Source: a virus
Strand: one strand, 5' to 3'
IMG/VR virus record: IMGVR_UViG_3300002143_000235
Location: 62,001-126,000 of that record
DNA: 64,000 bases
This document shows, one piece after another, positions 4,421 to 19,026 of the stretch. The stretch's first letter is position 1. Each line of letters starts with the position of its first letter. Under the pieces are notes generated by a model. The model had not been told where the DNA came from, did no database searches, and worked only from the letters and a program-made list of their open reading frames with translations. The position numbers and the translations under genes are program-made.

Positions 4421-6336
4421 TATGCGTTTGCTATGATGTTAATGAAATCTTCGTATGTAACAACTTGTGTTCCGTTTTTCATTGCTTTTTGCATTTTTGT
4501 TGTCATTGATGCAAGTGAAGCAGTTACTAAGTATTGTGTTTCTTTACCAAGTGATGTGTGCAATGCTTTACCAGATGATTCGATTTCTAATTTGAACTGT
4601 CCTTTAGATGAATGTGTTGAACAATCCCCACTCATTTCAAAAGTGATAAGACCAGCTTTTGGTTGAACAGGTTCGATAACATTTACATTGTTTGCACGTA
4701 AAACGTCAATCAGTGCTTGTACTTCATCCTGAACATCTTTGTTTTGAATGAAATCCATGATAACTTGTTTCTCAAGACCTTTAAAGTCGTAAGGAATGTT
4801 TGTCATCCAATTTGCAAGTTGTTTTGAAATTGTTTTACCACAGTTTCTGTAACCCATTGCATAGATAACTTGCCATAAATCAACTTGTGTGAAAGCAAAA
4901 AGATCTTCGATAAGAACTTGAAGTTCACGACCTTGTTTGAATTCTCCACTTTGAATTAAAAGCATCTCAAGTCCAAGTGGATTTTGAGACATCAATTCTT
5001 GAAGACCAAGACCAGCTTTAGCAATACGTTCTGAAAGAGCTGGACCAACATTTTTGATTCCTAATGCTGAAATACTATTGTACAATTTCAATGCTGCAAA
5101 TTCAGGTGTTGATTCAAAATCAGCAACCATAAGTTGTACACCATCAAAAACAACAGCGTGACCGTTCCATTCAGTCATTAAATCGTATGTCTCGTTACTT
5201 GGTTCAGTAACTTCAACAATCTTTGGAATGATATCACCAGATTTGATCAAAGATACCTGAGCACCAGGATAACATTTGTTCTTTAACATCCAATCAGCAT
5301 TGTAAACTGATGCACGTTTTACTTCTGTTCCTAAAAGGTCTACAGCTTCTAACAATGCAACTGGTGCTAATTGACCACGTTTACCGAGTGTCCAATCAAT
5401 ACCAATGATACGAGTGTAAACAGCTTGTGTAATAAACTTGATCGCAAGTCCCCAGTTTGGATATTTATCAGATCCACCTAAGTAAGAACGATCTGATTCA
5501 GGCATCTTAGCAACAATACCATCTAATTGATACTTACAATTTTCACGGTAATACTTGAATTCAGCATACATTTTTTCAAATGTTTTCAAATCAAGTTCAG
5601 ATGCGTTGTAGTGTTTGATAAAATCGAGTGTGTTGAATCCCCACTTGATCAATTGATCTTGTGTATTCTCTTTAAAATTAGCAATCTGAAATGCGACAAA
5701 ATCGATATCAGCACAAACTGTTTTATCACCTTTAGTTAATGCACCAGCAACAAAGTTACGTGCATTGGCATATTTCTTAACAGCATTTGAGTTCGGTCCG
5801 TAAACCGTATCAAACAAATACGTATCGATAACAGCTTCTCCACGAATCTCACCAGTAAATCCTTTGATAAATGATGGAACGTTTTGTGCAAAGCTTGCGG
5901 TGTAATCTTGTCCTTCGTAACCATCACCACGAGAAAGGATGTGCTTCAACTCACCATCTACATAAATACAGTTGATTGCATTACCATCCAATTTTGGTGT
6001 AAACTCAACAAGTGCTGATGACAATTGATTCAACCATGCTTGAAATTCCAAGAAAGGAATGTAATCTGGTTTGAACTGAATTTTCTTTAATGATCCCATA
6101 GGAGTCACGTGTTGAACTACAGCAGTCTTACCTTTACTGATAGTTGCTTTATCACCTTTGACCTTCACAGAACCGATGATTTCAACTACGAATGAATCAA
6201 TCTTTACAAGCGTCTCTTCGATGATATCGAATTCTGCATCATCCATGATCGGATTACCATCATAATAAGCTGCTTTTGCTCTTAAGTAAAGAGCTTCATC
6301 TGCTGTGAGTGTTTTAAGATCTATCGTGTTCGCCAT
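4420..6336 (-). CDS. ligA: NAD-dependent DNA ligase
   Basis: 638 residues. The adenylation motif KLDG is at residues 115-118 with the nucleotidyltransferase signatures SRGDGYEGQD (about 135) and GEIRGEAV (about 162). The N-terminal Y-Y-x-G-x-x-x-x-D-x-E-F-D segment is the Ia domain that binds NMN, so the enzyme should use NAD rather than ATP. Then come an OB-fold, helix-hairpin-helix repeats (IKNVGPALSERI, about 435) and a C-terminal BRCT-like domain from about residue 555. The four-cysteine zinc finger normally between OB and HhH is not visible. Seals nicks in replication and repair. T4 instead has an ATP-dependent ligase. Confidence 0.93.
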   Translation of the reverse strand: MANTIDLKTLTADEALYLRAKAAYYDGNPIMDDAEFDIIEETLVKIDSFVVEIIGSVKVKGDKATISKGKTAVVQHVTPMGSLKKIQFKPDYIPFLEFQAWLNQLSSALVEFTPKLDGNAINCIYVDGELKHILSRGDGYEGQDYTASFAQNVPSFIKGFTGEIRGEAVIDTYLFDTVYGPNSNAVKKYANARNFVAGALTKGDKTVCADIDFVAFQIANFKENTQDQLIKWGFNTLDFIKHYNASELDLKTFEKMYAEFKYYRENCKYQLDGIVAKMPESDRSYLGGSDKYPNWGLAIKFITQAVYTRIIGIDWTLGKRGQLAPVALLEAVDLLGTEVKRASVYNADWMLKNKCYPGAQVSLIKSGDIIPKIVEVTEPSNETYDLMTEWNGHAVVFDGVQLMVADFESTPEFAALKLYNSISALGIKNVGPALSERIAKAGLGLQELMSQNPLGLEMLLIQSGEFKQGRELQVLIEDLFAFTQVDLWQVIYAMGYRNCGKTISKQLANWMTNIPYDFKGLEKQVIMDFIQNKDVQDEVQALIDVLRANNVNVIEPVQPKAGLITFEMSGDCSTHSSKGQFKLEIESSGKALHTSLGKETQYLVTASLASMTTKMQKAMKNGTQVVTYEDFINIIANA

Positions 6337-12602: not shown

Positions 12603-12944
12603 TTACAATTTAATGAGTTCTTCATTCTTTATTGCCTTGCGTACATAACGCATAAGTGTGATTGCTTTAATTTCTGCATCAAATGAAGTAGTTCCTACGT
12701 CTTCTCTGTCATTCATATCAACAGTAAATTGATATGAACCATCAGATGTGTTGACTTGATAATAAAGTACTCCTGCAATAGCATGTGTAATCTTTGCCAT
12801 GTTACCTGCTGTAACAATGGTCTTCAAAATGGTTGTAGTTTCCATTTGGCTATATTTAAAATTTAGCGGAACACACCTGGTAATGATCCAGTTACAACTT
12901 CTCGTTGTGTATTCTATATGTTTATCTATGATAACATGTTTCAT
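12603..12944 (-). CDS. hypothetical protein
   Basis: 113 residues if read from 12944, or 80 residues from the internal ATG at 12845. The first reading overlaps the 3' end of the endonuclease gene by 23 bases. The C-terminal half looks coding, with an ordered alpha/beta pattern. Function unknown. Confidence 0.6.
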   Translation of the reverse strand: MKHVIIDKHIEYTTRSCNWIITRCVPLNFKYSQMETTTILKTIVTAGNMAKITHAIAGVLYYQVNTSDGSYQFTVDMNDREDVGTTSFDAEIKAITLMRYVRKAIKNEELIKL

Positions 12945-13733
12945 AAAAATCTTGCATATTTTTTTTCATGAAACGTTTTACATTAGGATGTGTAATATTT
13001 AAAATTATTGAAACTTTACACATCCAACCAATTTTTAGAAAATCAATTTTTGAATTTAAAATTAATTGAATCCTGTTATTAATTTTTTCTAGTTTATCTT
13101 GTTCTTTTTTATTTTTTTCTTCTCTAGCTTCTCTGATTTTCTGTTCTTTATAATATTGTTTTGTAAGAAATTCAGAAGGTATTTCAATTTTTTTTTTATC
13201 AAGTAATTGTAAAATTTTATTAATAGCTGTATAAATATTATTATTAATATCTTTTGCTGATATTCTTAATGTTTTCCATCCACTACCACGTAAAAAATCA
13301 TCACGTCGTTTATCAATTTCTATAACTTTTTTTTGTAAATGTGTACTTCCATCAATTTCAACACATAATTTATATTCAGGAAAAGCAAAATCAAGTTGAT
13401 ATATTGAAAATTGCATTTGATGAATCCAACCAGTTATATTATACTCTGTAAGATATTTTATCATTGTTAATTCTGGATAACTTATTTTACTACTATGATT
13501 AAGTAAATATGGAACTTTATCTGGATTGTTTTTTAAATATTCTGTCCTTGATTTTGATATTTTTTGTTTATGTTCTTCTGTTAATTTACGACCAGTATTA
13601 AAAATTCGTAATTTTTGTTTTTTTAATTCTAATTTTATAAAATAATTAGGATCACTTTTACAATTTGGTTTATGACCGCCTAATTTTTGTCCTGAAAAAA
13701 TATTAAATTACAATATTCACATATATGACTCAT
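12922..13733 (-). pseudogene. homing endonuclease (NUMOD-like plus Vsr/EDxHD-type nuclease), frameshifted
   Basis: From the ATG at 13733 the reading starts with a C-x2-C motif (CEYC) and then hits TAG. A -1 shift in the six-A run at 13695-13700 (six T in the message) joins it to an open frame reading GQKLGGHKPNC, GRKLTEEHKQKISKSRTEYL (a NUMOD3-like DNA-binding motif) and, from about 13464 down, a nuclease domain with LDFAFPEYKLCVEIDGSTH and RRDDFLRGSGWKTLRI. This layout is that of phage mobile endonucleases of the Vsr-fold (I-Bth0305I) kind. It is either recently inactivated, expressed by frameshifting in the homopolymer, or an assembly error. It sits directly next to the tRNA cluster, a common homing location. 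Confidence 0.75.
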
Positions 13734-13795
13734 AGTTTTTATTATTATATATCAACTATGAACTCTTTCAAAATTAATTAGTAGATTGCTTGTGT

Positions 13796-13866
13796 TCTCC
13801 CACCTGGAGTCGAACCAGGTTCCATAGATTAAAAGTCTATTGCATCACCACCAATGCTTTGAAAGA
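13796..13866 (-). tRNA. tRNA-Lys (UUU)
   Basis: Cloverleaf by hand: acceptor TCTTTCA/TGGGAGA (two G-U pairs), D arm GCAT/ATGC, anticodon arm ATAGA-CTTTTAA-TCTAT, T arm CCTGG-TTCGACT-CCAGG. Anticodon UUU. The 5' part overlaps an inverted repeat with the tRNA half upstream. Confidence 0.8.
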
Positions 13867-13868
13867 TT

Positions 13869-13917
13869 AATATTAGTAGCATTGGTGCGGTGCTTTAACC
13901 AACTAAGCTACGAGGTC
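13869..13917 (-). tRNA. tRNA 5' half (acceptor strand and D arm only)
   Basis: Reads GACCTCG-TA-GCTT-AGTTGGTTA-AAGC-A-CCGCA, a standard tRNA start through the 5' strand of the anticodon stem. No matching 3' half follows; the sequence passes into the tRNA-Lys gene instead. CACCAATGCT here and AGCATTGGTG in tRNA-Lys are perfect inverted repeats. Confidence 0.6.
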
Positions 13918-13923
13918 ATTATA

Positions 13924-13956
13924 ATGCCAACTCCGTAACTTAATTACTGAGCTGGC
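13924..13956. other. structured hairpin between a gene and the tRNA half
   Basis: GCCAACTC / GAGCTGGC stem with an inner GTAA/TTAC stem. No U run follows, so it does not look like a terminator; it could be an RNA-processing signal. Confidence 0.4.
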
Positions 13957-13971
13957 TAAATCTTATATGTC

Positions 13972-14208
13972 TTAATCTTTTTCATTTTTGTATTGTGTTT
14001 TTCTGTTGTGTTTCCAGCTTTGGTACATTCTTTGTTGCCACCGCATTAATCGTTTGTTTGAACTTTTTGCCCATCTATTTGGTATTAGTGGATAAAATGC
14101 TATACATTCATCCCAATAGATTGGATATAATTCGTCCATAAGAATACGTCTGTACTCTTTCCCATTTTGTGCCAAATCAAATTTAGCACGTCTTTTGTTG
14201 ATACTCAT
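13972..14208 (-). CDS. small basic protein inside the tRNA cluster
   Basis: 78 residues, strongly basic with eight tryptophans or tyrosines per half (WDECIAFYPLIPNRWAKSSN). Starts MSINKRRAKFDLAQNGKEYR. Could bind RNA, given charge and location, but that is a guess. No family recognised. Confidence 0.65.
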   Translation of the reverse strand: MSINKRRAKFDLAQNGKEYRRILMDELYPIYWDECIAFYPLIPNRWAKSSNKRLMRWQQRMYQSWKHNRKTQYKNEKD

Positions 14209-14261
14209 TGTGTTGTAGGTTTAATTTACCTTACAACGCATCAAATTTCTTTTTCATCTTG

Positions 14262-14348
14262 GGTGTATAACGAGAATTGCACTCGCAAGCCCTTTCGAGC
14301 ACTTGTTTCACAGACAAGCCAGACTAACTAATATCCTGCTTATACACC
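14262..14348 (-). tRNA. tRNA-like, anticodon GUG, with long variable arm
   Basis: Acceptor GGTGTATA/TATACACC pairs over eight bases, as in tRNA-His with its extra G-1. The anticodon arm is CTTGT-CTGTGAA-ACAAG (GUG, His). Between it and the T arm there is an extra hairpin GCTC-GAAA-GGGC, as in class II tRNAs. The T loop reads TGCAATT, with G at position 55 instead of U. The D stem is only CAG/CTG with a 13-base loop. Confidence 0.6.
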
Positions 14349-14359
14349 ATATATTTAGT

Positions 14360-14431
14360 GGAGAGAAATGGATTTGAACCATTGACCAGAGTCTCCACGA
14401 CTCCTGCTCTACCAGGCTGAGCTACCTCTCC
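14360..14431 (-). tRNA. tRNA-Pro (UGG)
   Basis: Acceptor GGAGAGG/TCTCTCC, D arm GCTC/GAGC, anticodon arm GGAGT-CGTGGAG-ACTCT, T loop TTCAAAT. Anticodon UGG. Position 33, almost always U, is G here. Confidence 0.75.
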
Positions 14432-14441
14432 AATTTAATGC

Positions 14442-14513
14442 TCCCCAAACTGGGTTCGAACCAGTGACCTTACGATTAACAGTCGCATGCTCTACCAACT
14501 GAGCTACTGAGGA
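14442..14513 (-). tRNA. tRNA-Asn (GUU)
   Basis: Acceptor TCCTCAG/TTGGGGA, D arm GCTC/GAGC, anticodon arm TGCGA-CTGTTAA-TCGTA, T arm ACTGG-TTCGAAC-CCAGT. Anticodon GUU; a canonical cloverleaf. Confidence 0.88.
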
Positions 14514-14575
14514 ATATAGCGTCTATGTAGAAGTGCACTTCTTTGTGAGCCATAGACGGCTTTGTTCACATTTGT

Positions 14576-14649
14576 GCGTCCCCAGGGAATCGAACCCTGA
14601 CCGATGGTTTTTCAGACCAACGTGCTCTACCAGTTTACACCAGAGACGC
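14576..14649 (-). tRNA. tRNA-Phe (GAA)
   Basis: Acceptor GCGTCTC/GGGACGC, anticodon arm TTGGT-CTGAAAA-ACCAT, T loop TTCGATT. Anticodon GAA. Confidence 0.85.
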
Positions 14650-14673
14650 ATTTATTATACAAAAATGTCGCGG

Positions 14674-14747
14674 CACACCAGGCAAGACTCGAACTTGCAA
14701 CCAACGGTTTTGGAGACCGTCATTCTACCGATTGAACTACTGATGTG
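14674..14747 (-). tRNA. tRNA-Trp (CCA)
   Basis: Acceptor CACATCA/TGGTGTG, anticodon arm CGGT-CTCCAAA-ACCG, T arm GCAAG-TTCGAGT-CTTGC. Anticodon CCA. A strong terminator lies directly at its 5' end. Confidence 0.85.
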
Positions 14748-14748
14748 T

Positions 14749-14783
14749 ATTAAAAAAAAAAATCCCAGCTTTTCGGCTGGGAT
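14749..14783 (-). terminator. strong terminator directly upstream of tRNA-Trp
   Basis: Stem AATCCCAGC / GCTGGGATT with a short loop, followed on the minus strand by a run of eleven or more T. It would stop transcripts coming from 14818-14955 one base before tRNA-Trp begins. Confidence 0.8.
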
Positions 14784-14817
14784 TCAAATTTCTTTTAGAT
14801 GTGTTTCGTTTTCTAAA

Positions 14818-14895
14818 CTAAATTAATTCTTCCGAGCCTGAGTCGTTTGACCAGAACTTAAAATTGTTATTATTATGTTTATTAAATGTTTTCAT
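14818..14895 (-). CDS. 25-residue small ORF between promoter and terminator
   Basis: ATG at 14895 to TAG at 14818, starting MKTFNKHNNNN and ending SGSEELI. It has a perfect TATATTTG promoter upstream (14948-14955) and the 14749-14783 terminator downstream, so it is the only content of a self-contained transcription unit. It may encode a leader-type peptide or be incidental to a small RNA. Confidence 0.4.
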   Translation of the reverse strand: MKTFNKHNNNNFKFWSNDSGSEELI

Positions 14896-14947
14896 CTTTG
14901 TAATGTTATATATGTAATTTTTGTTTCTCTTTCTTGTAATTATAAGA

Positions 14948-14955
14948 CAAATATA
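14948..14955 (-). promoter_or_regulatory. TATATTTG promoter inside the tRNA cluster
   Basis: TATATTTG on the minus strand, preceded by an A/T-rich stretch, about 53 bases upstream of the small ORF start. Confidence 0.6.
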
Positions 14956-15017
14956 CAGAAAAGTTTTTAATTATAAAAATTTATTTTAAAAACTTTTCTA
15001 TAAAATGTTTTTTTGAA

Positions 15018-15101
15018 GCGCAGGGCCGAGTCGAACGTCCACAAGGGTTATAAGCCTACCATGGTTATGAGCCACGAATGTTACCAATTACATCACCGCG
15101 C
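15018..15101 (-). tRNA. tRNA-like with two anticodon arms (CAU and UAU)
   Basis: 84 bases. Acceptor GCGCGGT/CCTGCGC (last pair mismatched), D arm TGT/ACA with AATTGGTA loop, T loop TTCGACT. Two consecutive anticodon-like hairpins occur: CGTGG-CTCATAA-CCATG (CAU, Met) and AGG-CTTATAA-CCC (UAU, Ile). The second sits where a class II variable arm would be, but its sequence looks like a copy of the first. One T-stem pair is A-G. Confidence 0.6.
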
Positions 15102-15151
15102 AGAACATATAGAAGCAATTCCTCACATCTTTATGTTTATTTGTATGTTAT

Positions 15152-15171
15152 ATATCTTTTTTTAAAAAAAG
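15152..15171. repeat. 20-base A/T palindrome
   Basis: ATCTTTTTTT / AAAAAAAGAT, a perfect palindrome between two tRNA genes; could fold as a weak hairpin or act as a terminator in both directions. Confidence 0.5.
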
Positions 15172-15213
15172 ATTAATATGTTTTAAAAAATACATTAAAC
15201 TTTTTAATTTTGT

Positions 15214-15278
15214 AGGGGTGGATGGAATTTAACCACCGACCTTTCATTCGAACACTCTAACAACTGAGCTACACCCCT
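15214..15278 (-). tRNA. tRNA-like with shortened anticodon arm
   Basis: Acceptor AGGGGTG/CACCCCT is perfect and the D arm GCTC-AGTTGTTA-GAGT is good. The T arm is GGTGG-TTAAATT-CCATC (C56 replaced by A). Only 15 bases lie between D and T arms instead of about 21, so no seven-base anticodon loop can form. Total 65 bases. Confidence 0.55.
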
Positions 15279-15356
15279 ATAATATTTTTCCTTATACGTT
15301 TGCAACCATATAAGGCGACAAGTTTTCGACCGAAGTCTTCGTATCCATTGTTACTA

Positions 15357-15427
15357 ATGATAAATCAGATTCGCACTGACGTCCTCCCGCTTTCTACAGG
15401 CGCTCTACTAGACTGAGCTATTACCCC
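15357..15427 (-). tRNA. tRNA-like with altered anticodon stem and G55 T loop
   Basis: D arm GCTC-AGTCTAGTA-GAGC is canonical. The anticodon stem is reduced to CCTG/CGGG with loop TAGAAAG (A at 33; GAA in the anticodon position). The T arm is GTCAG-TGCGAAT-CTGAT, again with G at 55. Acceptor GGGGTAA/TTATCAT pairs poorly at the end. Confidence 0.5.
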
Positions 15428-15464
15428 TCAAACATAATCAATGAACCGTTTGTTCATCCTTTTG

Positions 15465-15540
15465 GACACATGACAGGATTCGAACCTGTACTCCCTAGCC
15501 CAAATGGCGCAGAGCTCTATCCAGTTGAGCTACATGTGTC
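15465..15540 (-). tRNA. tRNA-His-like body with scrambled anticodon arm
   Basis: Eight-base acceptor GACACATG/CATGTGTC (tRNA-His-type G-1), D arm GCTC-AACTGGATA-GAGC, T arm ACAGG-TTCGAAT-CCTGT are all perfect. The anticodon region CTGCGCCATTTGGGCTAGGG has no five-pair stem with seven-base loop; at best GCC-ATTTG-GGC pairs. Confidence 0.55.
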
Positions 15541-15624
15541 TTTTCATGTAAAAGCTATTCACATACGATTTCGATACTTACCGTGTCAGCAGTTGTCTTA
15601 ATCCGCACGAACTCTTACATTACT

Positions 15625-15663
15625 TTTGTATGCATACAAATTCAGATCCTGCAGGACTCTGAA
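15625..15663. other. two adjacent perfect hairpins
   Basis: TTTGTATG/CATACAAA (a 16-base palindrome) is followed without gap by TTCAGA-TCCTG/CAGGA-C-TCTGAA. No coding potential. Possibly part of a structured RNA or a relic of tRNA-like sequence. Confidence 0.45.
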
Positions 15664-15666
15664 CAA

Positions 15667-15739
15667 AAGCAACATATGGCTCTTTACTCCATATATCTCT
15701 GACTCCACGTCAGCACTTTCCAATTTAAGCTAGATGCTT
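15667..15739 (-). tRNA. cloverleaf-like RNA with five-base anticodon loop and no TTC loop
   Basis: 73 bases fold by hand as acceptor AAGCATC/GTTGCTT (one mismatch), D arm GCTT-AAATTGGA-AAGT, anticodon stem CTGAC/GTCAG with a five-base loop GTGGA, and a third arm ATATGG/CCATAT with loop AGTAAAGAG. The last loop lacks the T-loop consensus. Confidence 0.4.
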
Positions 15740-15742
15740 CGT

Positions 15743-15830
15743 GATAACAAAGGGACTCGAACCCAATTCCCCCGGCTTGCTCTCCCCTGCAAAGGGTACC
15801 ATAGCCAGTGTGCTCCATACACCACTTATC
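15743..15830 (-). tRNA. tRNA-like with expanded anticodon region (UGC visible)
   Basis: Acceptor starts GATAA/TTATC, D arm TGT-ATGGAGC-ACA, T loop TTCGAGT on GGG/CCC. A stem CTGGCT/AGCCGG encloses about 25 bases that contain a second hairpin CCC-TTTGCAG-GGG. That inner loop would present UGC (Ala). Either a class II-like RNA or an anticodon loop with an 18-base insertion. Confidence 0.5.
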
Positions 15831-15832
15831 AA

Positions 15833-15881
15833 TCCCCAGGTTTCGAACCCTGGATTATATTGGGGTAATTAGTCCCAATTT
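15833..15881 (-). tRNA. tRNA 3' half (anticodon hairpin and T arm only)
   Basis: Hairpin TTGGG/CCCAA with loop ACTAATTAC, then CCAGG-GTTCGAAA-CCTGG, a T arm. No D arm or acceptor pairing is present; it lies between two larger tRNA-like genes. Confidence 0.45.
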
Positions 15882-15885
15882 TTGT

Positions 15886-15963
15886 GGCCGGAGTAGGATT
15901 CGAACCTACGACCACAGTTCCGGAAACCCGGTAACTGTTGCTCTCCCACTGAGCTATCCAACC
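15886..15963 (-). tRNA. tRNA-like with ten-pair anticodon hairpin
   Basis: Acceptor GGTTGGA/TCCGGCC, D arm GCTC-AGTGGGA-GAGC and T arm GTAGG-TTCGAAT-CCTAC are canonical. The anticodon stem ACAGTT/AACTGT is closed by 13 bases (ACCGGGTTTCCGG) that pair further as CCGG/CCGG around GTTT. No seven-base loop is available. Confidence 0.6.
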
Positions 15964-15995
15964 GTTAAACACTTATTTGTGTTTGTTTGATGAAG

Positions 15996-16003
15996 CAAAT
16001 ATA
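15996..16003 (-). promoter_or_regulatory. TATATTTG promoter of the tRNA cluster
   Basis: TATATTTG on the minus strand about 33 bases upstream of the first tRNA-like gene; the best candidate promoter for the cluster. Confidence 0.65.
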
Positions 16004-16045
16004 TGTATAATATTTGAATAATAAAAATATTTATTATTTTTTTTT

Positions 16046-16696
16046 TCATTTTCTTTTTCTAAATCCATATTTTGGATCAAAACCTTTTGCAACAACTTTC
16101 TCTTTATCAGTAAGTTGAACTTCAGACATTATTGGACGTAATTGTTCTGATATAAATGTTTGCATTTGAAGAAATGCTGCAAACGGATCTACGCATTTAT
16201 AAAAATCTATATCTTTTAAAAGCGGTTCTAATGATAAATTATGTTTTATAGAAGAAATATTATTACAAAGAATAAAAGATCCTACTTGATGTTCATGAAA
16301 TAATGTGGTAATAGATGTATTATTAAGCTGTTTGATAAATAGATCAAATGTTTCTACATTTTGTTTATTATTTAAGTATCTCCATTTGTAAATCTTTTGA
16401 CAAGTGAATAATTCACTTATAGTAGATTGATCGTAAATCCATTCATATTCAATCACATTAGTTGTTAAATTTTTACGTTCTAATCGTATTGCTGGATACA
16501 CTTTTCCAGCAAATCCAATAATATAAAAGCTACCACTATTATTATTATTAATATAGATATCATTTGGAAAATTAATATTGTTAAGATATACACTAATATT
16601 TTGGCATTCTTTCCGAGTATAAATAATATCTGAATCAATACCTAATGTATGAACTAGTCCATCATAGTAGTCTTTGTTCTTTGCTATAATTTTCAT
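16046..16696 (-). CDS. conserved KDYYD-family protein of unknown function
   Basis: 216 residues from ATG at 16696. The start MKIIAKNKDYYDGLVHTLGID, the IGFAGKVYP block, DIDFYKCVDPFAAFLQMQTF and the end DKEKVVAKGFDPKYGFRKRK match a protein I know from Bacteroidota genomes and their phages. Its function is not established. The start is chosen because TATATTCG ends four bases upstream, again a leaderless arrangement. Confidence 0.8.
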   Translation of the reverse strand: MKIIAKNKDYYDGLVHTLGIDSDIIYTRKECQNISVYLNNINFPNDIYINNNNSGSFYIIGFAGKVYPAIRLERKNLTTNVIEYEWIYDQSTISELFTCQKIYKWRYLNNKQNVETFDLFIKQLNNTSITTLFHEHQVGSFILCNNISSIKHNLSLEPLLKDIDFYKCVDPFAAFLQMQTFISEQLRPIMSEVQLTDKEKVVAKGFDPKYGFRKRK

Positions 16697-16700
16697 AATA

Positions 16701-16708
16701 CGAATATA
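16701..16708 (-). promoter_or_regulatory. TATATTCG promoter, leaderless spacing
   Basis: TATATTCG-TATT-ATG on the minus strand in front of the KDYYD-family gene. Confidence 0.65.
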
Positions 16709-16747
16709 CCGATCAATTTTCAAATACAAAAGACCTTACATGTTTAA

Positions 16748-16755
16748 TATATAAA
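16748..16755 (+). promoter_or_regulatory. ATATATAA-type late promoter candidate
   Basis: TTTAATATATAAAGG about 35 bases upstream of the ATG at 16789; same A/T box as in front of other virion genes. Confidence 0.5.
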
Positions 16756-16788
16756 GGTCAATAGAAACAAAAATAGAATACAAATAAT

Positions 16789-17277
16789 ATGACTAACGAA
16801 CAAGAAACACAAATGGATGCAGAATTTGAAAACTCTGCAGAAGAAACTGTAAACGAAAATGTTTCTGAATCAATTGAAGAGGTTCCTGTAAAAGAAGAAA
16901 AGAAACCGCGTAAACCTGCTAAGCCTCGTGCTAAAAAAGAAAAAGAAGAAACAGTTGTTGAAAAAACAGAGGTTGTTGAAACTATTGATGAAGAAGTGGT
17001 TGTTGAAACTATTGAAGAATTAGAAGTGTTTGAAACTATTGATGATGAAGAAGTGGTTGAAACTATTGATGATGAAGAAGTGGTTGAAACCACTGAACCA
17101 GAAATGTCAAAAAAAGATTGGTTTAAAAGTGAATTACTTAAAGGAGCTTATGCGATCTATCAAAATGGTATTTTAGTGACAACATCAACAAATCCTGAAG
17201 TAATTCATATTGCTGATGCATACTTTCAAGTAAACAACAAAAAATATGCTTACAACGGCATAGAGATTAAACGATAA
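16789..17277 (+). CDS. acidic repeat protein with small C-terminal domain
   Basis: 162 residues. Residues 1-60 are acidic and then lysine-rich; residues 60-103 consist of imperfect repeats of VVETIDDEE type, also visible as direct DNA repeats at 16975-17095. The last 55 residues form a compact alpha/beta domain (DWFKSELLKGAYAIYQNGIL). Three bases upstream of the 581-residue virion-type gene and behind a late-type promoter, so probably a virion or assembly protein. Confidence 0.75.
   Translation: MTNEQETQMDAEFENSAEETVNENVSESIEEVPVKEEKKPRKPAKPRAKKEKEETVVEKTEVVETIDEEVVVETIEELEVFETIDDEEVVETIDDEEVVETTEPEMSKKDWFKSELLKGAYAIYQNGILVTTSTNPEVIHIADAYFQVNNKKYAYNGIEIKR
16975..17095 (+). repeat. in-frame direct repeats (27-base type)
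   Basis: GAAACTATTGATGATGAAGA and close variants recur in phase with codons inside the acidic protein gene; probably the product of slippage. Confidence 0.75.
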
Positions 17278-17280
17278 AAT

Positions 17281-19026
17281 ATGATGAAGAACCTTCTTTC
17301 AAAAGAACGATTACTGATCCGAGAGGCTGCTGTTCACTGGGATGATTCTATAATTGGGATGTTATCAAAAGTGATAACATCCCCACTTTCTTGGTTGAAA
17401 GGTTCCATTAAAAAAGGTATCCGACGTCAACAAGTAAATAATTTGATTGTTCAATGGGGTATGGAGTATGTCAAAGCAATTAAAAATGTAGATCTTCCAG
17501 AAGAAGGTTCATCAACCGATGATCAAACTGACAATACTCAATCAACTGATGGCACTCAATCAACTGAATTGACTGCTGAAGATCGTGCAAGATATATCGA
17601 ATCTTTAAATTCTTCTTTTGAAATACTTAAAAAAATCAAACAAACAATCTCGCCAATGAGATCGTGGAGATTTCTTGATACACAAGGAGAAGCTTACTCA
17701 AAAATATATCAAACATTATCTAATATAACATTTGATGCAAGTGATCTTGCAAGTGTTCTTAAGGTTGTAAAAATTAATGAAGACATATCTAAGCTAGGTG
17801 AATATATTAGTACAATAAATTCATTTATTTCTACTATTAAGAAATCTGAAAATGTACGTGAATTTACTTTAAATATCAGAGATATTCAAAATTTTCAATT
17901 GACTATAAAAAAAATTATGTCAGTTATTCCAATACTTGAAGACATTTATGAACTTACTATTCGTGAACTTCAAGGTGATACAGAAGAAGAATTACTAGAA
18001 GAGCCTGTGCAGGAATCTATGATTTTTGAAGCAAGTGAATATTCTCTTCCTGGTAAAATTGAAGATCTATTTAATGCTGATATGTTAGAAGAAATCAAAC
18101 AAGTTGATGGTATCAAATTGAAAACTCGTAAGACAATCAATATTGTTCGACTCAATACTATTCGATATGAAGCAAATTATGTTATTGAAAAAGCTGGTAA
18201 ATCAGAAAAAGCAGATAATCAAGCTAAATTAAAAAAGATTTGGGAACAAGGAATTCTTAACACAAATGATTACTTTCAAGATGTTATAGATGTTGATTAT
18301 GTAATGGAACATGCTACTGGAAATGTTGATGCAAAAACTACAGAAACAATTCAACAACAACAAGGTACAATTGATCAAGTAATACAACTTGGGCTCAGTG
18401 AAATACTTCAAATAGGAACTAAATTTGATGTAAAGGCGATTTATGCTTTTCAAGGTGTTTTGCGTGGTCAAAACGGTAAGTCAAGTAGTCAAGTATTATT
18501 TATGTCGCCTACTGATGATTTTACAGAACAAACAAACGGAAGCAAATATTTTGTATTTAAACTTCTTGGAAGTTATAGATATAATCGCAAAACAAAACTC
18601 ATAGAACGTTTCAATACTTTTGCTGGATTAACAAGTAATGCTAAAATGATGAATAATTTTAATAATATAGAAAATAATTATTATGTAATGATGTCATCTC
18701 TTAGACCCGGAACAATGACAGATATGTTTATTTATTCCAACACTGGTAAATATTTTTTTAAGCAAGATATTGTACCAGATGTAGCAAATGTTGCAGATAG
18801 TATACGTAAGTTTAAACAAAATACTTTAGCACTTACATTAAAACAATTAGGACCAGTATCTAATGTCTTCAGATTTAAAATAAATCAAAGATTTATAGTT
18901 GATTCAAATGAAATATTAAACAAACGTTATCCAGGTGTTCAACTATCTGATGGTACAACAGATAAAGATGTTGTAACAGCTAAAACTAATCATGTTAAGT
19001 TAATGAATATCATAGGAGATGTATAA
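17281..19026 (+). CDS. virion-type protein, probable head or neck component
   Basis: 581 residues. The N-terminus MMKNLLSKERLLIREAAVHW includes LIRE, a candidate gp21-type processing site. A T/S/Q/D-rich linker lies near 75-95, helical segments follow, and another candidate cleavage site (IFE-A) is near 247. Four bases after the acidic repeat gene and two before the next gene, so translated in a block. I do not recognise the family; a structural role is inferred from context. Confidence 0.75.
   Translation: MMKNLLSKERLLIREAAVHWDDSIIGMLSKVITSPLSWLKGSIKKGIRRQQVNNLIVQWGMEYVKAIKNVDLPEEGSSTDDQTDNTQSTDGTQSTELTAEDRARYIESLNSSFEILKKIKQTISPMRSWRFLDTQGEAYSKIYQTLSNITFDASDLASVLKVVKINEDISKLGEYISTINSFISTIKKSENVREFTLNIRDIQNFQLTIKKIMSVIPILEDIYELTIRELQGDTEEELLEEPVQESMIFEASEYSLPGKIEDLFNADMLEEIKQVDGIKLKTRKTINIVRLNTIRYEANYVIEKAGKSEKADNQAKLKKIWEQGILNTNDYFQDVIDVDYVMEHATGNVDAKTTETIQQQQGTIDQVIQLGLSEILQIGTKFDVKAIYAFQGVLRGQNGKSSSQVLFMSPTDDFTEQTNGSKYFVFKLLGSYRYNRKTKLIERFNTFAGLTSNAKMMNNFNNIENNYYVMMSSLRPGTMTDMFIYSNTGKYFFKQDIVPDVANVADSIRKFKQNTLALTLKQLGPVSNVFRFKINQRFIVDSNEILNKRYPGVQLSDGTTDKDVVTAKTNHVKLMNIIGDV

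What the first reader, a model, noticed from the sequence alone, without database searches (positions are those of the whole stretch)
13796..15963. tRNA cluster in which anticodon arms are selectively remodelled
Of about thirteen tRNA or tRNA-like units, at least six keep good acceptor, D and T arms but have an abnormal anticodon arm: expanded (15743, 15886), duplicated (15018), shortened (15214, 15357) or scrambled (15465). Random decay should hit all arms alike. Retention of the body with loss of decoding suggests RNAs selected for something other than translation, for example decoys or resistant substrates for anticodon nucleases, or regulators that use tRNA processing. Plain erosion of an unused array is the main alternative.
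Basis: partly seen in the sequence, partly recalled or inferred. Interest (0 to 1): 0.85.

Follow-up and report, generated by a model that had tools for sequence, protein, structure and literature searches.

The report
Phage tRNA operon with attenuator leader
The misshapen tRNA-like genes are real but probably mostly worn spare copies; beside them sits a switch, repeated before tRNA gene groups of huge phages, in which a tiny peptide spelled with the very amino acids those tRNAs carry appears to turn the tRNAs on when the matching host tRNAs run short.

Summary
On the minus strand, six units (15016-15963) have abnormal anticodon arms and six (13794-14746) are ordinary Trp, Phe, Asn, Pro, His and Lys tRNAs. 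The two sets are separate blocks. The abnormal block has no leader and starts behind a consensus promoter. Three abnormal units also have acceptor or T-stem defects, so the remodelling is biased to the anticodon arm, not exclusive to it. Anticodon nuclease decoys are not supported. Relaxed constraint is the likeliest cause, with one caveat: a 10-nt mini-arm unit recurs in a distant phage.

The larger result lies between the blocks. A 25-codon leader ORF (MKTFNKHNNNNFKFWSNDSGSEELI), rich in codons that the downstream tRNAs read, is followed by an intrinsic terminator directly before tRNA-Trp; its tail can pair with the terminator as an antiterminator. The same layout stands at 43 tRNA operons in 11 huge-phage genomes and at 7 in four unrelated jumbo phages. 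All 20 amino acids are enriched in leaders whose operon encodes the matching tRNA; 0 of 20,000 permutations reach the observed match (43-operon set). Best reading: trp-type attenuation that releases phage tRNAs when matching host tRNAs are scarce. I found no earlier report in the library searched.

The parts
15996..16003 (-). promoter -7 element TATATTTG of Bacteroidetes type upstream of the abnormal array
   Evidence: consensus TANNTTTG from general knowledge
15885..15963 (-). tRNA-like unit, 15-nt anticodon loop (8-nt tandem duplication), other arms intact
   Evidence: Rfam tRNA 53.4 bits
15743..15831 (-). degenerate Ala-UGC-like unit with about 25 nt inserted in the anticodon arm; T stem poor
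   Evidence: read from sequence; not found by ARAGORN or Rfam
15465..15539 (-). tRNA-like unit, mismatched anticodon stem, other arms intact
   Evidence: 44.7 bits
15356..15427 (-). tRNA-like unit, 4-bp anticodon stem, A33, weak acceptor
   Evidence: 32.0 bits
15213..15278 (-). 66-nt tRNA-like unit with 10-nt mini anticodon arm; U19:A56 in place of G19:C56
   Evidence: 49.8 bits; counterpart L073:947-1011
15016..15102 (-). tRNA-Met-like unit with two tandem anticodon arms (CAT, TAT)
   Evidence: 32.5 bits
14948..14955 (-). promoter -7 element TATATTTG of the leader transcript
14818..14895 (-). leader ORF MKTFNKHNNNNFKFWSNDSGSEELI; control codons Lys, Phe, Asn, His, Trp
14830..14839 (-). antiterminator strand (AGGCTCGGAA) in the leader tail, complementary to the terminator 5' arm
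   Evidence: z -2.2; fold -14.0 kcal/mol before the 3' arm is made
14749..14785 (-). intrinsic terminator, 10-bp stem plus T run, directly before tRNA-Trp
14672..14746 (-). tRNA-Trp (CCA), first tRNA of the attenuated operon
14574..14649 (-). tRNA-Phe (GAA)
14440..14513 (-). tRNA-Asn (GTT)
14358..14431 (-). tRNA-Pro (TGG), position 33 is G
14261..14345 (-). tRNA-His (GTG) with long variable arm; similar His genes in G008, G004 and G005
13794..13866 (-). tRNA-Lys (TTT), last tRNA of the operon

Best explanation
The region holds two adjacent blocks of tRNA genes on the minus strand. The downstream one (13794-14955) is a trp-type attenuated operon. A ribosome follows RNA polymerase along a 25-codon leader rich in the codons that the operon's own tRNAs read. 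If host tRNAs for Lys, Phe, Asn, His and Trp are plentiful, the ribosome reaches the stop codon and covers the leader tail, so the terminator forms and the tRNAs are not made. If any of those tRNAs is scarce, the ribosome stalls early, the leader tail pairs with the terminator's 5' arm, and transcription runs into Trp-Phe-Asn-Pro-His-Lys. Shown by sequence: the codon match, its recurrence at 50 operons, the terminator, and matching antiterminator complementarity. Inferred: actual termination, actual stalling, and that the natural trigger is depletion of host tRNAs, for example by tRNA-cleaving defences. The upstream array (15016-15963) has its own promoter and no leader; its remodelled anticodon arms most likely record relaxed constraint on surplus copies (this part about 0.6).
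For: Leader, then terminator, then tRNAs in five operons of this genome, with matching content: K/F/N/H/W; V/A/Q/G; Q; L/I/T/C/M; S/R. A fixed rule gives 43 leader-operon pairs (43 of 46 terminators) in 11 genomes, including LR745206, LR756502, LR756504 and LR756501; mean cognate fraction 0.411 against 0.199 +/- 0.022 for within-genome permutations, 0 of 20,000 as high. The same position holds an ORF at 32 of 101 other terminators. With 7 operons of four unrelated jumbo phages added, all 20 amino acids are enriched in leaders whose operon encodes that tRNA, ratios 1.6-9.0. Isoacceptor level: leaders of operons with tRNA-Ile(TAT) use ATA 16/24, those with Ile(GAT) use ATY 11/13; Arg AGR 7/8 against CGN 6/9. 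Leader tails match their own terminator arm better than shuffles (mean z -2.84, 30/43 below -2) and better than other operons' arms (-12.3 against -7.4 kcal/mol, Wilcoxon p 1.5e-8).
Against: No expression data. The full-length thermodynamic fold favours the terminator even with the tail free, so antitermination must be co-transcriptional, as in classical attenuators. Leaders within the clade are related, so pairs are not independent. The window leader contains no Pro codon although tRNA-Pro is in the operon. By the same rule KVP40 shows only one ORF inside its array, and XacN1, Brizo, PAU, GAP32, CBB, RaK2, T5 and T4 show no leader, so it is not general to phage tRNAs. In Bacillus phage G the codon match is clear but no antiterminator was detected (z -0.8).
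Confidence: 0.88

Rival explanations
1. Abnormal array as surplus, decaying tRNA genes: copies made redundant by the leader-controlled operons collect slippage and repair indels, possibly helped by endonucleases that cut tRNA genes near the anticodon arm.
For: Abnormal arms 27/207 in leader-controlled operons against 27/72 elsewhere, Fisher p 2e-5; 15885 and 15016 are tandem duplications; T and acceptor defects in three units; DUF559/NUMOD3, HNH and GIY-YIG endonuclease-like genes lie beside or in such arrays, and the HNH gene in L010 follows a truncated tRNA-Leu right after its D arm.
Against: Consensus promoter kept; three bodies nearly perfect; the mini-arm unit recurs in a distant phage; the leaderless class contains some false hits; the G000-only comparison is p 0.06.
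Confidence: 0.6
2. Abnormal array as tRNA-shaped RNAs with a non-decoding function (substrate or decoy for tRNA-binding proteins other than anticodon nucleases, or a processing signal).
For: Promoter; intact bodies; U19:A56 elbow change in 15213; mini-arm counterpart with covarying 3-bp stem and G3:U70, A73 (alanine identity) in L073:947-1011.
Against: The strict mini-arm pattern matched only two IMG/VR contigs, one of them the near-identical sister contig; a looser pattern gave 11 scattered short-arm tRNAs without a common form; no shared anticodon-arm design among the six.
Confidence: 0.25
3. The leader senses charged tRNA in general (amino-acid starvation) or acts as a homeostat of tRNA supply, not as a detector of tRNA cleavage by host defences.
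For: Classical attenuators respond to aminoacyl-tRNA level (established knowledge); the sequence cannot tell depletion from starvation.
Against: Making more tRNA does not help when the amino acid itself is lacking; the output here is tRNA, not biosynthesis.
Confidence: 0.35
4. The short ORFs are unrelated small proteins and the terminators simply end upstream genes.
For: Short ORFs occur upstream of 32 of 101 other terminators.
Against: Permutation and 20-of-20 amino-acid tests; antiterminator match.
Confidence: 0.02

Closest known systems
Leader-peptide transcription attenuators of amino-acid operons (trp, his, phe, thr, leu, ilv)
   Same: Short leader ORF with control codons, antiterminator in the leader tail, intrinsic terminator before the first gene.
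   Different: The regulated genes are tRNA genes of a phage, not biosynthetic genes; one leader covers several amino acids and matches the operon's own tRNA set, down to isoacceptor codons for Ile and Arg.
Phage tRNAs with anticodon-loop mutations that evade tRNases (van den Berg et al. 2023, PMC10264068)
   Same: Phage tRNAs as replacements for host tRNAs destroyed by defence; altered anticodon loops.
   Different: There the arm still decodes; here six arms are rebuilt or lost. That paper proposes insensitive tRNAs; the attenuator found here would add regulated supply.
tRNA sets of huge phages (Al-Shayeb et al. 2020, PMC7162821)
   Same: Four of the genomes tested here match the lengths of its four largest complete genomes; many tRNAs per genome reported.
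   Different: The passages on tRNAs that I read there do not mention leaders, terminators or operon control.
Phage tRNAs that overcome retrons and other defences (PMC11555353)
   Same: Phage tRNA supply counters tRNA-targeting defence.
   Different: I read only the start of its abstract; nothing there on transcription attenuation of the tRNA genes.

Membership tests
Leader-peptide (trp-type) attenuator | Short ORF with codons matching the regulated function | tested here: met
Leader-peptide (trp-type) attenuator | Intrinsic terminator between leader and first gene | tested here: met
   14749-14785; 43 of 46 such terminators have a leader ORF
Leader-peptide (trp-type) attenuator | Mutually exclusive antiterminator that a ribosome at the stop codon would mask | tested here: met
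   median position -26 to -14 from the stop end, mean z -2.84; own against foreign arm p 1.5e-8
Leader-peptide (trp-type) attenuator | Readthrough changes with cognate charged tRNA | not testable with these tools
   needs expression or reporter data
T-box riboswitch | T-box RNA structure that binds tRNA directly | tested here: not met
   no T-box match in Rfam up to E 10 over window 13000-17000
tRNA gene with group I intron | Intron of 200 nt or more with group I core in the anticodon loop | tested here: not met
   inserts of 8-25 nt; no intron family match
Functional decoding tRNA (six abnormal units) | 5-bp anticodon stem, 7-nt loop, U33 | tested here: not met
   read from sequence; for the scanned units; 15016 has one normal arm followed by a second
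Anticodon-loop escape tRNAs (van den Berg type) | Decoding arm kept, with substitutions that block tRNases | tested here: not met
   arms are expanded, shortened or mismatched

The most novel reading that the evidence does not exclude
Huge phages watch the supply of every class of host tRNA during infection with codon-specific leader peptides, and release pre-sorted sets of replacement tRNAs only when that class is destroyed: an inducible counter-defence against tRNA-cleaving immunity. It would have arisen or spread independently in phages of Bacteroidetes, Bacillus, Agrobacterium, Caulobacter and Salicola.
Probability: 0.45. Interest if true: 0.95.

Novelty: new variant of a known kind. Interest (0 to 1): 0.87.

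Why it matters
Why phages carry tRNA genes has been debated for over 50 years. If each tRNA operon has its own sensor for scarcity of exactly the tRNAs it encodes, the genes are likely kept for supply on demand, not for constant codon compensation. This is testable in cultured phages (CcrColossus, phage G). It would extend attenuation from amino-acid biosynthesis to tRNA supply and give codon-specific reporters of tRNA cleavage during infection.

Tried and rejected
RtcB for intron splicing: no match in this genome. Short-arm tRNA patterns across IMG/VR: the strict pattern found only G007 and the sister contig; the looser one found 11 unrelated short-arm tRNAs. DNA similarity of the cluster to phage records gave only generic tRNA matches; protein 17281-19026 had no match in phages. 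Unbiased missing-arm scan: too few units to decide. Rfam leader-peptide hits (Phe_leader, Thr_leader) are far below gathering and were not used as evidence. Accessions NC_005859, NC_004687, LR745207 and AY129337 are not in the collection. Nine literature searches found no paper on leader-peptide attenuation of tRNA operons; only openly licensed PMC papers were searched.
Full report
WHAT THE REGION IS. The window is positions 62001-126000 of a 313,708-bp virus record. It encodes phage head and packaging proteins (portal, terminase, head maturation protease), and its terminase is related to those of the largest known phages: LR745206, LR756502, LR756504 and LR756501 (36-42% identity). Their lengths of 634, 642, 636 and 735 kb match the four largest complete genomes of Al-Shayeb et al. 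2020 (PMC7162821).

THE OBSERVATION. ARAGORN, Rfam and inspection give 12 tRNA or tRNA-like units between 13794 and 15963, all on the minus strand. They are not mixed among the normal ones: all six lie at 15016-15963, and the six ordinary tRNAs (Trp, Phe, Asn, Pro, His, Lys) lie at 13794-14746. A near-identical second assembly (99.91% over 3.5 kb) has the same abnormal units. Three of the six also have other defects, so 'selective' is only partly true. A scan that treats all arms alike found two units lacking only the anticodon arm and none lacking only T or D, too few to decide.

THE ATTENUATOR. Between the two blocks, on the same strand, lie a TATATTTG promoter element (14948-14955), a 25-codon ORF (14818-14895, MKTFNKHNNNNFKFWSNDSGSEELI), and an intrinsic terminator (hairpin 14760-14785 plus T run to 14749) directly before tRNA-Trp. 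The ORF is rich in Lys, Phe, Asn, His and Trp codons, and the operon behind it encodes Trp, Phe, Asn, Pro, His and Lys tRNAs. The other tRNA operons of this genome follow the same plan: MKTITNISSSSRSRRSSSRRSGYVLSEVF before Ser and Arg tRNAs (Ser genes read by eye, Arg by ARAGORN), MKNLITLTIITLCTLMCNGLVVS before Leu, Ile, Thr, Cys and Met, MKTIFNIVVAQAVQGQAGRLPSQIILC before Val, Val, Gly and an Ala-like gene, and a leader ending MSTYQQLQQQQFSD before Gln.

TEST IN RELATIVES. I fixed a rule that does not look at amino acids: a terminator less than 450 nt before the first tRNA, and an ATG ORF of 11-60 codons ending 15-50 nt before the terminator. In 11 genomes it found 46 terminators, 43 with a leader. 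The mean fraction of leader residues that are cognate to the operon's tRNAs is 0.411. Permuting operons within genomes gives 0.199 +/- 0.022 and permuting over all gives 0.181 +/- 0.017; none of 20,000 permutations of either kind reaches the observed value. Some leaders found this way include extra 5' codons (for example the 51-residue Gln leader of L009), which only dilutes the match. Isoacceptors match too: ATA codons in leaders before tRNA-Ile(TAT), ATT or ATC before tRNA-Ile(GAT); AGR or CGN for the matching tRNA-Arg. When tRNA-Asn sits in the W/F/H/K operon (G000, G008, G004, G005) that leader is Asn-rich; when it sits in the L/T/V/I/M operon (G007, W01, W02) that other leader is Asn-rich.

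ANTITERMINATORS. In each case the leader tail was tested for pairing with the terminator's 5' arm. Mean z against dinucleotide shuffles is -2.84, 30 of 43 are below -2, and the pairing lies at about -26 to -14 from the end of the stop codon, where a terminating ribosome would cover much of it. Own arms pair better than foreign ones (-12.3 against -7.4 kcal/mol, p 1.5e-8). For the window leader the antiterminator folds at -14.0 kcal/mol before the terminator's 3' arm exists.

UNRELATED PHAGES. The same rule finds leaders in Bacillus phage G (MMKCSWFEFDTDFTDVFYCEYTFYSLYTF... before Cys, Asp, Phe, Tyr, Glu, Thr, Ser), Agrobacterium phage Atu_ph07, Salicola phage SCTP-2 (four operons) and Caulobacter phage CcrColossus (MMTYRNNVRQIRVRQFNLAG... 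before Val, Ile, Gln, Asn, Arg). Antiterminator complementarity is strong in six of these seven (z -3.5 to -5.9) and absent in phage G. T4, T5, Brizo, XacN1, GAP32, CBB, RaK2 and PAU give no leader; KVP40 gives only an ORF inside a 27-tRNA array. Over all 50 pairs, every one of the 20 amino acids is more frequent in leaders whose operon carries its tRNA.

HOW IT LIKELY WORKS. By analogy with the trp and his operons (established knowledge): full translation lets the terminator form; a ribosome stalled for lack of a cognate tRNA leaves the tail free to pair with the terminator's 5' arm and lets polymerase pass. The output is the very tRNAs that were lacking. Since more tRNA is of no use when the amino acid itself is missing, I infer that the natural signal is loss of host tRNA, as caused by tRNA-cleaving defences (abstracts of PMC10264068 and PMC11555353). 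This last step is not shown.

THE ABNORMAL ARRAY. It has its own promoter element (15996-16003) and no leader. Across 11 genomes, units with intact acceptor, D and T arms have abnormal anticodon arms in 27 of 207 cases inside leader-controlled operons and 27 of 72 outside (p 2e-5; G000 alone p 0.06; the second class contains some false hits). This favours relaxed constraint. Duplications (15885, 15016) and deletions (15213, 15356) look like slippage or break repair. Endonuclease-like genes (DUF559 with NUMOD3 at about 12922-13707; HNH and GIY-YIG in other arrays) offer a possible source of breaks (inference). A remainder is not explained by decay: unit 15213 changes G19:C56 to U19:A56, and a unit of the same spacing, 48/66 identical, exists in a 508-kb phage with a G3:U70 acceptor pair. 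I leave about one chance in four that some of these RNAs have a non-decoding role.

VERDICT. The main finding is a leader-peptide attenuator in front of the normal tRNAs, part of a system found at tRNA operons of huge phages. I found no report of it in the papers that could be searched.

Noticed in passing
L013:1265-1355 (G000 310.8 kb): tRNA-like sequence in permuted order: T arm and 3' acceptor strand first, then 5' acceptor strand and D arm (YrlA-like hit, 35.6 bits, below gathering). Nearby are several hairpins with a TTACAGCAA motif resembling Dictyostelium class I RNA (37.3 bits, below gathering).
   Followed up: partly
L012:3720-3990, 4775-4958, 5056-5135: tRNA-like ends with matching acceptor strands that enclose about 180-215 nt, and one with a hairpin inserted in the T loop; a second leaderless abnormal array behind its own TATATTTG promoter.
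   Followed up: no
L010:2221-2754: HNH endonuclease-like gene right after the D arm of a truncated tRNA-Leu inside an attenuated operon.
   Followed up: partly
window 12922-13735 (-): DUF559/NUMOD3 endonuclease-like gene downstream of the tRNA cluster; the sister contig has one extra base at 13701, so the frame differs between copies.
   Followed up: partly
window 14261-14345; L064:1009-1094; L066:644-729; L067:1620-1705: tRNA-His genes of about 85 nt; those of the window and L064 were read and have a long, class II-like variable arm. Long-arm tRNA-Asn and tRNA-Lys occur in G007 and G008.
   Followed up: no
window 14358-14431; L009:2822-2893: tRNA-Pro with G33 and tRNA-Val with C33 in place of the nearly invariant U33, in leader-controlled operons; possible tRNase escape changes.
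   Followed up: no
L064:4281-7760 (G008): Orthologous-looking leaderless array with a 61-nt tRNA-like unit lacking an anticodon arm behind a promoter and a CAATC..GATTG hairpin also seen at L012:4580-4600, and a GIY-YIG gene inside the array.
   Followed up: partly
L073:1131-1203, L120 (W04): tRNAs with anticodon CTA (amber suppressor type) in G007 and, as two copies, in the 735-kb phage.
   Followed up: no
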